Part shown: in pieces, positions 29,074 to 32,675 of the stretch
Layout: each line of letters opens with the position of its first letter
Numbering within the stretch: position 1 is the first letter of the stretch
DNA from: Balneolaceae bacterium
GTDB taxonomy: Bacteria; Bacteroidota; Rhodothermia; Balneolales; Balneolaceae
Direction of reading: 5' to 3'
DNA: 64,000 bases
Assembly (NCBI GenBank): GCA_020832285.1
Contig: JAFIFB010000024.1
Span: 1-64,000, forward strand
Notes under the pieces: generated by a model
Seen by the model: the letters and a program-made list of their open reading frames with translations, nothing else
What the model was told of the DNA's origin: nothing
Databases searched by the model: none
Translations under genes and position numbers: made by a program

Positions 29074-29357
29074 GATATCCCTGATTTTTAGTTTTTGTTT
29101 GTATTTCGTTTAAATAACAGATTAAATAATAGCAACAAATCCCTGTTTGTCAAATAGTTTAACCTTTTTTTTCATTATCATATAATATAAATGCACTTTT
29201 GATTATTTTTTGAAGAGTGCCCCGACTTGTGAAAGCAGGTTAAGATCTTAATCAGTCAACACAACTGACCAAAACGATTAAGAAAAATGACACGTTAGAG
29301 CTATCTGCCACTAACACGCATTTCTCACCAAGAAATTTGGTTGTGGGCAAGGTATTA

Positions 29358-29398
29358 ATAATCAAATTGATAGATTTACTCATAATTTTTTCTGTGAG
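29358..29398 (+). repeat. Dispersed 41-bp repeat, copy 1
   Basis: The 41 bp from ATAATCAAATTGATAGATTT to CTGTGAG recur at 53241-53281 with one difference (C or T at position 22). A following aaATCTGGGCTAA-type segment (29399-29411) also has a counterpart after a 28-bp insertion at 53310-53322. A weaker match to the last part is seen near 33091-33114. It is intergenic in both full copies. Confidence 0.85.
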
Positions 29399-29563
29399 AA
29401 ATCTGGGCTAACGAAGTTTACACCCTGAATGAGACATGTTTAATTTCTCGCAGAAGATCGTGGAGTTTACCGAAGATTTATGCTGAATACCTGCGAATCT
29501 CAACGGATTCACCTGTGTATCTCTGCGAAAAAAAAGAGATTGTTTTCGATTTATAAAAAGATC

Positions 29564-29678
29564 TGCCTAACATGATCAATAACTGTGGCTTTCAATGAAT
29601 TCTAATATATTTTGGACAGTTGTTGTTAGTCAAACTCATTTCCGCCAAATAATGCAGAGTGAATAACCGGGTTAGGCA
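29564..29678. other. attC-like site (low-confidence)
   Basis: TGCCTAAC (29564-29571) and GTTAGGCA (29671-29678) are 115 bp apart end to end and fit the integron core forms RYYYAAC and GTTRRRY, within the size range of attC sites. The inner arms pair only partly (CAATAACTGTGGC against the reverse complement of TGCAGAGTGAATA). An 8-bp inverted pair at this distance can arise by chance. No integrase gene is near. Confidence 0.25.
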
Positions 29679-29727
29679 TTTTCCCCTTTTTTTTCGTTTA
29701 TTACAAAGATAGAGAACCGATACAGCC

Positions 29728-30021
29728 ATGAATTATAAAGAACTTATAGAGCGCCTTGCCAGTCAAACGGGGCATTCACAAAATAAAACCAGACAACTTC
29801 TGGGTGAGGTAACTTCTGTGCTTTCTGACCAATTAAGTGAAGGAAAATCAGTTTCGATACCTGACCTTGGCACTTATGGCACCAAAATCAATGACGAAAA
29901 AAAGGTTTATAATCCTCATTATGATGCATATATCCTTGTGCCCCCCAAACGTGTAGTTGATTTCACTCCTTCGTCAGTTATCAAAGAAAAAATGAAATTT
30001 TTGGAGACCAGCGATGAGTGA
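29728..30021 (+). CDS. Degenerate HU-family DNA-binding protein
   Basis: A 97-residue protein with the HU/IHF fold pattern: KELIERLASQTGHSQNKTRQLL helices, SIPDLGTYGTK beta turn and a C-terminal VVDFTPSSVIKEKM. The DNA-intercalating arm, normally RNPxTGE, is replaced by YNPHYDAYILVPP, so the classical minor-groove contact is altered. It overlaps the next HU gene by 8 bp and is translated with it. A heterodimer or scaffold for the HU-LysM protein is a sensible inference. Confidence 0.8.
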   Translation: MNYKELIERLASQTGHSQNKTRQLLGEVTSVLSDQLSEGKSVSIPDLGTYGTKINDEKKVYNPHYDAYILVPPKRVVDFTPSSVIKEKMKFLETSDE

Positions 30022-31129
30022 AAAAATCACTTTCAAAGAGCTGGTAGAATTGATTGCCAAGCAATCGAACCAGAGCCAAAACTCCACTAACAGTTTTATC
30101 CATGAACTGGTGGGTATTATTGAGGAAGGGCTGAAAAAAAACGGTTCTGTAAGCCTCTCCGGGTTTGGTAAGTTTGAACTTCGATGGATGAAGGAGCGGG
30201 CAGGCAGGAACCCTCAGACAGGCGAAGAAATTACAATTCCCGGACAAAACAAGGTGGTTTTCAAACCATTTAAGTCTCTTCGTGAAGATGTAAATCAGCC
30301 TTTTGCAAACCTTGAATCCAAAATTATCGGAGATGACCCGGATGCTTCCAAACCTGCACCGAAAGCCGTGCCTCTTGCAGCAGCATCTTCAGTTGCATCA
30401 ACTAAAGGTGATATAAGCATTGATGATCTTCTGATCGAAAAAGAAAATCCACGGTTTCCATCAGCTCCCGTCAAGAAGAAGCCTCCTCTGACAACACCAT
30501 CAGAAGAAAAGCTCGCCCGGGAAGTTCAGGAAAAAGGAACCTTCAACTGGTCGTATGCAGCCGCGGTAGTTGTGGTTCTTGCAGCCTTTATCATTCTCTT
30601 TTTTATGATGCAGCGATCGGGTGAGCAAACAGATATCGCACCAACTGCCGATGACCCCACGGAACAGGTTTTAACCCCCATCGAGCCAGTAATTGAACCC
30701 GACGAACAGGCAGCTGATGATGATGAAGCTGAACCGGGTGAAGAAATAGAACAAACCTCTTTCGAAACTGCATCACATTCACTGCAAAGCGGTGAAACAC
30801 TCTGGGGCATCGCCGAATCTCAGCTTGGCAATCCCTATCTTTGGCCGGTTATCTACTACCTTAATCTTGACGTGCTGGACAACCCAAACCAGATTCCCGC
30901 TGAGTCTGATATCGAAATCCCATCTATTTCAGACCCCGATAATTTAAATGAATTCGAAAGAGAACAGATAGCACTCGGATATTTTTCCTTATACGAATGG
31001 AACCGGGCCAACAATCCGGACGAAGCCCGATATTTTCTCTGGGCAGTCGGGGTTTTTTCTCCCGACCTGCTGGATCAACCGCCTTCACAAGTTGATCCCG
31101 ACGACCTGACATTTGCCAGAAATCGATAG
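30014..31129 (+). CDS. Membrane-anchored HU-LysM protein
   Basis: A 371-residue mosaic protein. Residues 1-95 are a canonical HU domain, including the DNA-contact arm RNPQTGEEITIPG (65-77). A Pro/Ser/Lys-rich linker (about 95-175) leads to one transmembrane helix (178-200). An acidic periplasmic linker (about 205-250) precedes a LysM-like domain (255-305: HSLQSGETLWGIAESQLGNP, WPVIYYLN, IPAESDIEIPS), which usually binds peptidoglycan. Read together this predicts a protein that touches DNA inside and cell wall outside. HU fused to SPOR domains is known in Bacteroidota; the LysM version is analogous. Dabb, CHAD and Smr genes follow. Confidence 0.85.
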   Translation: MSEKITFKELVELIAKQSNQSQNSTNSFIHELVGIIEEGLKKNGSVSLSGFGKFELRWMKERAGRNPQTGEEITIPGQNKVVFKPFKSLREDVNQPFANLESKIIGDDPDASKPAPKAVPLAAASSVASTKGDISIDDLLIEKENPRFPSAPVKKKPPLTTPSEEKLAREVQEKGTFNWSYAAAVVVVLAAFIILFFMMQRSGEQTDIAPTADDPTEQVLTPIEPVIEPDEQAADDDEAEPGEEIEQTSFETASHSLQSGETLWGIAESQLGNPYLWPVIYYLNLDVLDNPNQIPAESDIEIPSISDPDNLNEFEREQIALGYFSLYEWNRANNPDEARYFLWAVGVFSPDLLDQPPSQVDPDDLTFARNR

Positions 31130-31162: not shown

Positions 31163-31474
31163 ATGATACGTCATATAGTCATGTGGAAATTAAAAGACCA
31201 GGCCGCAGGTGCCACTAAAGAAAAAAATGCCGAAAAATTAAAACTGATTCTGGAAGGCCTCAGAGCCAATATCGATGAGATCAAGGCTGTTGAAGTGGGT
31301 ATCCAGATCAACCCGGACGAGAAAGACGCCCTTGATGTTGTATTAATTTGTGATTTTGCAACTGATCTCGACTTTAAAATGTACACTCGTAACAGCCATC
31401 ATCAAAAAGCCATTAACTTTATAGAAACGGTGGCTGAAAAACGCTTCTTCGTAGATTATAAAGTGGACCTTTGA
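31163..31474 (+). CDS. Dabb-family (stress-responsive A/B barrel) protein
   Basis: A 103-residue dimeric-barrel protein: MIRHIVMWKLKDQAAG start, KAVEVGIQINPD, a DVVLICDFATDLDFKMY strand and HHQKAINFIETVAEKRFFVDY, the last with the HP-type histidine pair. The Dabb family has stress-linked and small-molecule enzymes; function here is unknown. It lies 33 bp after the HU-LysM gene and overlaps the next start by 4 nt, so it belongs to this operon. Confidence 0.9.
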   Translation: MIRHIVMWKLKDQAAGATKEKNAEKLKLILEGLRANIDEIKAVEVGIQINPDEKDALDVVLICDFATDLDFKMYTRNSHHQKAINFIETVAEKRFFVDYKVDL

Positions 31475-32403
31475 AAGTTGTTAGAAAAACCAGGCTCATG
31501 CTCACAGAAACCGATTTAAACCTGCTCAGTAGTGAAACCTGCCAGGAAAATTTGGTAAAACTTTTTCATGAATTTGCTAATGAACTCACTCAACAGTCTT
31601 ACCAGGCAATTGATACACCGGAGGCCTCAACACACCTGATCAGAAAAATGCTGAAACGTTTCCGGGCTTTTGCCAAGTTGTTACGTACAAACCGGAATTC
31701 TCCAGCTTATAAGCAGGTAAATGCCTTTTTGAGGGACCAGGGACGCGAATTTTCTGCATTAAGGGACGCACATGTACGGCACCTGTTGCTATATCAGTTA
31801 CTCAGTGATACAAACTATCGACCGTTTGCTGAACTGCTCGAAAACCTTCAAAGCAGGAATAGAGATCAAGTCCGCCAACTCGAGTCAGAATTATTGGATG
31901 AAGAGAATCGCTTTGAACGATTTGCACACCGGATCGGATCAAATCAGCCTCTCAGTCAATACTTTCTCGAAAAGCAAACCGATTCAGAATTACTGGTACA
32001 AAACTATCGGAAATCTTTTGATTTAAGCCGTGCAGCTTTTCAAGCCGCTGTCACGTACAAAGACACTGAATTGTTACACGAATGGAGAAAGCGACTGAAA
32101 GATTTTCAATATCAAACCGAACTTATCGCAGGAAGCACTCCCGCTGATCTATTCCCTCAGTTCCCTGAACTTGAACAGCTATGCGATCTGCTTGGAGAAA
32201 TGAATGATTATTCTATGCTGGCATGCTGGCTGCAATCAATCGAAAAAAAATCCCCGGATTCGTCCAATACTTCTGATTTAGCGGACAATCTTACTAAACA
32301 GATGTACACCCTTTATTCAGAAACAGAGCAAAAAGGAATTCAATTTTACAGTGAAAGTACAAGAATGATTGAAAAATTTATCTCCGCAGCTAAAAAGCAA
32401 TGA
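31471..32403 (+). CDS. CHAD-domain protein
   Basis: A 310-residue helical protein of the CHAD family. It begins at a TTG (31471, overlapping the Dabb stop) or at an ATG 27 nt later (31498). Conserved basic positions are seen in HLIRKMLKRFRAFAKLLR, FSALRDAHVRHLLLY and LLHEWRKRLKDFQYQTELI, the two copies of the H-x3-(R/K)xxR-type helix that bind polyphosphate. CHAD proteins associate with polyphosphate granules or inorganic polyphosphate. It is coupled to the Smr gene downstream. Confidence 0.9.
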   Translation: MKVVRKTRLMLTETDLNLLSSETCQENLVKLFHEFANELTQQSYQAIDTPEASTHLIRKMLKRFRAFAKLLRTNRNSPAYKQVNAFLRDQGREFSALRDAHVRHLLLYQLLSDTNYRPFAELLENLQSRNRDQVRQLESELLDEENRFERFAHRIGSNQPLSQYFLEKQTDSELLVQNYRKSFDLSRAAFQAAVTYKDTELLHEWRKRLKDFQYQTELIAGSTPADLFPQFPELEQLCDLLGEMNDYSMLACWLQSIEKKSPDSSNTSDLADNLTKQMYTLYSETEQKGIQFYSESTRMIEKFISAAKKQ

Positions 32404-32675
32404 ATAATAACGAACCGCATAAACTGGAAATCAATGGAGTTCTTGACCTTCACTATTTTAAGCCAGAAGACCTCTCTACTCTCGTGGATGAATTCATCGA
32501 TGCATGCCTTGAAAAAGAAATTCATGAAATAAGGATCATTCACGGCAAGGGAATCGGCAATATCCGCCGAAGTGTTCATGCTCTGCTGGACCGGAATCCC
32601 CATGTAACAGGATATCAGCTTGCAGGCCCTTCGGGAGGGGGCTGGGGAGCAACAATAGCAAATCTGATTCCCTGA
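32400..32675 (+). CDS. Small Smr-domain protein
   Basis: A 91-residue protein made up of only the Smr fold: DLHYFKPEDLSTLVDEFID, then IRIIHGKGIGNIRRSVHALL with the HGKG motif, and GGGWGATIANL at the end. Smr domains of MutS2 and small Smr proteins have nuclease or RNA-cleavage activity. It overlaps the CHAD gene by 4 nt and closes the operon of HU, HU-LysM, Dabb, CHAD and Smr. It lacks the N-terminal parts of MutS2. Confidence 0.93.
   Translation: MNNNEPHKLEINGVLDLHYFKPEDLSTLVDEFIDACLEKEIHEIRIIHGKGIGNIRRSVHALLDRNPHVTGYQLAGPSGGGWGATIANLIP

What the first reader, a model, noticed from the sequence alone, without database searches (positions are those of the whole stretch)
30014..31129. Membrane-anchored HU-LysM protein: a possible nucleoid to cell-wall tether
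Seen: one frame encodes a canonical HU domain with the RNPQTG arm, a single transmembrane helix at 178-200, an acidic linker and a LysM-like domain. Known: HU binds and bends DNA, LysM binds peptidoglycan, and HU-SPOR fusions exist in Bacteroidota. Inferred: a protein with DNA contact in the cytoplasm and cell-wall contact in the periplasm. The orientation follows from a cytoplasmic HU domain.
Basis: partly seen in the sequence, partly recalled or inferred. Interest (0 to 1): 0.75.

Follow-up and report, generated by a model that had tools for sequence, protein, structure and literature searches.

The report
Membrane-anchored HU–LysM protein with HU partner
This bacterium makes a membrane protein with a DNA-packing (HU) domain inside the cell and a predicted cell-wall-binding (LysM) domain outside, always encoded together with a second small HU protein; the pair recurs across two large groups of Bacteroidota and looks like a tether between chromosome and cell wall, although no function has been tested.

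Summary
Window 30014-31129 (+) encodes 371 aa: HU domain (PF00216, E 7.6e-26), disordered linker, one transmembrane helix (~179-201), acidic linker, LysM fold (252-304) and a conserved helical C-terminus (306-371). LysM is below Pfam's cut-off on this sequence alone (12.4 vs 20.9 bits) but is supported by a family profile, an AlphaFold model (55 residues on Kbp's LysM at 1.2 A) and a relative that passes the cut-off.

HU1 precedes HU-TM-LysM in every relative read with upstream sequence, in Balneolaceae and in Bacteroidales (18 of 18 loci). In Bacteroidales the anchored HU has lost the DNA-intercalating proline while HU1 keeps it, which suggests a heterodimer. A sister pair, small HU + HU-TM-SPOR, exists in the same genome, but its HU domains lack DNA-binding arms.

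Best reading: an HU1/HU2 heterodimer holds DNA, HU2 crosses the inner membrane and LysM grips peptidoglycan, a two-gene nucleoid-to-wall tether analogous in logic to HubP/FimV. Architecture is well supported; DNA binding, wall binding and function are inferred. New variant of a known kind (HU-TM-SPOR). Interest 0.6.

The parts
29728..30021 (+). HU1: small stand-alone HU protein, 97 aa, diverged arm (YNPHY), partner gene
   Evidence: PF00216 E 2.3e-18, 66.6 bits; directly upstream of HU-TM-LysM in all relatives read with upstream sequence; orthologue at E < 1e-25 in 45 of 58 family genomes
30014..31129 (+). HU2-TM-LysM: membrane-anchored HU protein, 371 aa
30014..30021 (+). 8-nt overlap ATGAGTGA (HU2 start / HU1 stop), suggesting translational coupling
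   Evidence: same overlap in most Balneolaceae relatives
30014..30304 (+). HU domain (aa 1-97) with RNPQTG arm
   Evidence: PF00216 aa 7-94; AlphaFold model aligns to HU of 1p71, Z 9.1
30305..30547 (+). disordered linker (aa 98-178), variable in length in relatives
   Evidence: pLDDT mostly < 50 for 105-160; low conservation; linker 60-260 aa in relatives
30548..30616 (+). single transmembrane helix (aa 179-201)
   Evidence: one such segment in 46 of 47 relatives scored, more K/R on the N side in 42 of 47
30617..30757 (+). acidic linker (aa 202-248)
30767..30925 (+). LysM domain (aa 252-304)
30929..31126 (+). conserved helical C-terminal extension (aa 306-371), found in the genus and near relatives
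   Evidence: pLDDT 92-98; as conserved as the LysM in Balneolaceae (0.68 vs 0.61), sparse in distant relatives

Best explanation
HU1 and the HU domain of HU2 form a cytoplasmic HU heterodimer (like HU-alpha/beta or IHF-alpha/beta) that binds DNA. HU2 continues through a long flexible linker and one inner-membrane helix into the periplasm, where its LysM domain binds glycan strands of peptidoglycan. The complex ties the nucleoid (or a bound locus) to the cell wall, so that the chromosome is positioned or held during growth and division. Shown by computation: the domains, one membrane helix, the conserved overlapping gene pair and its distribution. Inferred: topology (N inside), heterodimer, DNA binding, peptidoglycan binding and the tether function.
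For: HU domain with complete arm; LysM fold. One membrane helix in 46 of 47 relatives with more K/R on the HU side in 42 of 47; cysteines of the Bacteroidales proteins almost all on the HU side. HU1 adjacent in every locus read, mostly overlapping. HU1 keeps the arm proline in all 30 aligned, while HU2 keeps it in all 14 Balneolaceae but in none of 16 Bacteroidales (V/I/E): this fits a proline-bearing arm being supplied by HU1. Natural fusions: the sister SPOR system has both HU domains in one chain in genus g11 and in Bacteroidales, whose model aligns along its length to single-chain IHF (89 residues, 2.8 A, Z 5.5). Precedent for the logic: the HubP periplasmic LysM is necessary and sufficient for its polar targeting and its cytosolic part anchors the origin via ParA1 (PMC8789113); the FimV LysM binds sacculi in vitro (PMC12918733).
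Against: Nothing has been assayed. The HU domain of HU2 is only weakly basic (net +2 here, about 0 in many relatives) and loses the intercalating proline in Bacteroidales. HU1 in Balneolaceae is near neutral or acidic in many members. LysM domains do not all bind peptidoglycan: Kbp, the closest structural match, is a potassium-binding protein. The pair is missing in some near-complete Balneolaceae genomes (e.g. G096, G098, G084), so it is dispensable. The heterodimer could not be modelled.
Confidence: 0.5

Rival explanations
1. The HU pair has become a protein-protein module (as proposed for CCDC81-type HU domains); the complex is an envelope scaffold or division protein and does not tether DNA.
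For: Arms decay in the sister SPOR proteins: PF00216 covers only 3-50 in HU-SPOR, and the arm is shortened in HU-CCDC81_bac proteins. Proline lost in Bacteroidales HU2 and low net charge of HU2.
Against: LysM-type HU2 matches the full HU profile including the arm (3-90); R62, T69, G70 and other arm positions are nearly invariant in both groups, and HU1 keeps its proline in all 30 aligned.
Confidence: 0.25
2. A membrane-bound regulator: LysM senses the state of peptidoglycan and changes how the HU dimer bends promoter DNA near the membrane (one-component signalling, with HU as output).
For: One membrane helix joins an extracytoplasmic sensor-like domain to a DNA-binding domain, the architecture of membrane one-component regulators (general knowledge). 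HU/IHF regulate transcription in other bacteria (general knowledge).
Against: The linker between HU and membrane is long, disordered and very variable (60-260 aa), which suits a tether better than signal transmission. Neighbouring genes (Dabb, CHAD, Smr, TonB receptor) show no envelope-stress theme.
Confidence: 0.15
3. The LysM domain is not a wall binder: it binds an ion or other ligand, as in Kbp (YgaU), or a protein through the conserved C-terminal helices, and the membrane helix merely brings HU to the envelope.
For: Closest structural matches of the LysM include Kbp; the 306-371 helices are as conserved as the LysM in the genus.
Against: Kbp carries a BON domain and is cytoplasmic (general knowledge); here the LysM lies beyond a membrane helix, and Bacteroidales relatives mostly end soon after the LysM without the helical extension.
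Confidence: 0.1

Closest known systems
HU-CCDC81_bac_1/bac_2-TM-SPOR proteins of Bacteroidota (PF18174, PF18175, PF05036)
   Same: Two HU domains, one membrane helix, a periplasmic peptidoglycan-binding-type domain. In Balneolales also organised as small HU + HU-TM-SPOR
   Different: SPOR in place of LysM; usually one chain in Bacteroidales; DNA-binding arm degenerate; PF18175 scores below its cut-off on the LysM protein (19.2 vs 35)
HubP/FimV/TspA polar landmark proteins
   Same: Periplasmic LysM, one membrane helix, acidic region; HubP anchors a chromosome origin (PMC8789113, PMC12918733)
   Different: Reverse order (LysM N-terminal after a signal peptide), FimV/TPR domain, contact with DNA through ParA rather than a DNA-binding domain; different phylum
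HU/IHF nucleoid proteins
   Same: HU fold and arm; two-subunit design like HU-alpha/beta and IHF
   Different: Membrane-anchored, long linker, LysM; below all HU/IHF equivalog cut-offs
Rv3852, membrane-anchored nucleoid-associated protein of Mycobacterium tuberculosis
   Same: DNA-associated protein with a C-terminal membrane helix, linked to wall synthesis through Wag31 (PMC8233713)
   Different: No wall-binding domain described there and not an HU protein (second point from general knowledge)
Kbp (YgaU), BON-LysM
   Same: LysM fold, rmsd 1.2 A over 55 residues
   Different: Soluble potassium-binding protein with BON, no membrane helix (general knowledge)

Membership tests
HU/IHF superfamily (PF00216) | PF00216 over its cut-off across the whole domain | tested here: met
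   90.6 bits vs 22.4, positions 3-90 of 90; fold match Z 9.1
HU/IHF superfamily (PF00216) | binds DNA as a dimer | not testable with these tools
Canonical HU or IHF subunit (NCBIfam equivalogs) | score above equivalog cut-off | tested here: not met
   68.4 vs 111 for IHF-alpha, 49.4 vs 162 for HU-alpha
LysM (PF01476) | Pfam cut-off on the window protein | tested here: not met
   12.4 vs 20.9 bits
LysM (PF01476) | b-a-a-b LysM fold; profile support within the family | tested here: met
   model and VIA match to Kbp; family profile hits solved LysM chains; homologue L119 22.6 bits over cut-off
LysM (PF01476) | binds N-acetylglucosamine glycans | not testable with these tools
   no assay
HU-CCDC81_bac-TM-SPOR | SPOR domain | tested here: not met
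   no SPOR hit on the protein
HU-CCDC81_bac-TM-SPOR | PF18175 over cut-off | tested here: not met
   19.2 vs 35 bits
HubP/FimV | N-terminal signal peptide and LysM, C-terminal FimV/TPR domain | tested here: not met
   LysM lies C-terminal, HU N-terminal; no FimV or TPR Pfam hit
Kbp/YgaU BON-LysM (NF008399) | BON domain and score over cut-off | tested here: not met
   only the LysM part matches (profile 87-147 of 149), 26.5 vs 134 bits

The most novel reading that the evidence does not exclude
A dedicated HU heterodimer, one half soluble and one half spanning the inner membrane and binding the wall, physically ties the bulk nucleoid to peptidoglycan in Balneolaceae and many Bacteroidales: a chromosome-positioning system that works without ParA-type intermediates.
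Probability: 0.35. Interest if true: 0.85.

Novelty: new variant of a known kind. Interest (0 to 1): 0.6.

Why it matters
How Bacteroidota place and hold their chromosomes is little known. A two-gene pair that joins an HU dimer to a wall-binding domain would be a direct nucleoid-to-wall link, testable by deletion and localisation. Its recurrence in Bacteroidales puts it in range of genetically tractable gut bacteria. The parallel SPOR and LysM versions allow a comparison of a probable DNA-binding and a probable non-DNA-binding form of the same design.

Tried and rejected
Instead I modelled the naturally single-chain HU-HU of the SPOR proteins. 2) Restriction to Balneolota: rejected, because the same pair exists in Bacteroidales. 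3) HU-TM-LysM in sister families of the order (f2-f5): not found in the sampled genomes; their LysM hits whose frames could be read are unrelated proteins. 4) HU1-like hits in f3 (G112, G114) are ordinary HU with no partner. 5) Literature: the library returned no paper on HU-LysM proteins; the HU-superfamily survey I remember (Burroughs et al. 2017, Cell Cycle; from memory) was not found under the DOI I tried, so whether it mentions the LysM version is unknown. 6) A gene neighbourhood that explains function: downstream Dabb, CHAD, Smr are conserved in the genus but give no functional lead. 7) Promoter and terminator scans near the pair are at chance level.

Full report
What is there. The open frame at 30014-31129 (+) codes for 371 residues. 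Residues 7-94 match PF00216 at E 7.6e-26 over the full profile. An AlphaFold model built on 25 relatives shows the HU fold (1-97), low-confidence linkers, a helix at 179-201 that coincides with the only strong hydrophobic segment, and a confident block from 250 to 371: b-a-a-b (252-256, 263-271, 274-283, 299-303) followed by helices (313-370). The HU part aligns to HU of 1p71 (Z 9.1), and the 252-306 block aligns to the LysM domain of Kbp (55 residues, 1.2 A, Z 6.6).

LysM status. The wider evidence reverses it: NF008399 at E 6.9e-6 on 244-304, a family profile that finds solved LysM chains down to 6e-10, the predicted fold, and homologue L119 with the same architecture that passes the Pfam cut-off at 22.6 bits.

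The partner. Directly upstream lies a second HU gene, 29728-30021, 97 aa, PF00216 66.6 bits. Its stop overlaps the start of HU2 by 8 nt (ATGAGTGA). In every Balneolaceae locus read with upstream sequence, HU1 precedes HU2, mostly with the same overlap. HU1 orthologues at E < 1e-25 occur in 45 of 58 family genomes. The full architecture occurs in 24 of 28 congeneric genomes, the others being at most 84% complete, but it is missing in some near-complete genomes of other genera, so it is not essential to the family.

Distribution. A phylum survey with the Balneolaceae profile drew in two genomes of a distant family with HU1 + HU-TM-LysM. Sampled sister families of the window's own order lack it. 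The pattern could be ancient with many losses, or transferred; I did not test this.

Signs of a heterodimer. In the aligned set the HU1 arm proline is invariant (30 of 30). In HU2 it is present in 14 of 14 Balneolaceae and in 0 of 16 Bacteroidales, where V, I or E replaces it. In Bacteroidales HU1 is basic (+2 to +10) while HU2 is near neutral. This division of labour, with strict adjacency, fits obligate partners. Independent support comes from the sister system: the own genome encodes a small HU overlapping an HU-TM-SPOR protein (G000:C18), this pair is found in nearly all Balneolales loci read, and in genus g11 and in Bacteroidales both HU domains sit in one chain. A model of such a chain aligns along its length to engineered single-chain IHF (Z 5.5, modest) and also to proteins of the microtubule doublet (Z 8-9).

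What differs from the SPOR system. The SPOR-type HU domains have lost or shortened the DNA-binding arm (PF00216 covers only positions 3-50 in the own genome's protein; short arms). The LysM type keeps it. If either design touches DNA, the LysM type is the better candidate.

Topology. One hydrophobic helix passes the threshold in 46 of 47 relatives; K+R is higher on the HU side in 42 of 47; cysteines of the Bacteroidales proteins are almost all on the HU side. HU-in, LysM-out is the natural reading but remains a prediction. The linker between HU and membrane is disordered and ranges from 60 to 260 residues, which suits a flexible tether.

Mechanism and analogues. The best reading is a nucleoid-to-wall tether. 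The closest experimental precedent for the logic is HubP: its periplasmic LysM is necessary and sufficient for polar targeting and its cytosolic part anchors the chromosome 1 origin through ParA1 (PMC8789113); the LysM of P. putida FimV pulls down with sacculi, yet that FimV does not affect segregation (PMC12918733), a warning against assuming function from architecture. Rv3852 is a membrane-anchored nucleoid protein linked to wall synthesis (PMC8233713). Neither is a relative.

Limits. No activity was tested. The HU1-HU2 complex could not be modelled. Outside the phylum the architecture was not surveyed. The most relevant prior survey of HU domains could not be read, so the novelty claim covers only what this library shows.

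Noticed in passing
G000:C18:15501-16541 (-) and the small HU directly upstream (locus L018): The same genome carries a second membrane HU pair: small HU overlapping HU-TM-SPOR; conserved in nearly all Balneolales loci read, fused into one chain in genus g11 (L122, L149).
   Followed up: partly
L163-L176: Bacteroidales single-chain HU-CCDC81_bac_1/2-TM-SPOR proteins with short arms; their model resembles proteins of the microtubule doublet. G330 has both this and the HU1 + HU-TM-LysM pair.
   Followed up: partly
window 30929-31126: Helical C-terminal extension after the LysM, as conserved as the LysM within the genus and near relatives, absent or different in distant relatives; no function assigned.
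   Followed up: no
window 31163-32675: Downstream genes Dabb, CHAD and Smr keep this order behind the HU pair in the genus (CHAD missing in some); relation to the pair unknown.
   Followed up: partly
window 29074-29727: About 650 bases without a clear gene upstream of HU1, with no Rfam match; possibly regulatory.
   Followed up: partly
G000:C38:7678-7953 and G000:C24:65689-65958: Two further stand-alone HU genes in the genome, so the anchored pair is additional to ordinary HU.
   Followed up: no
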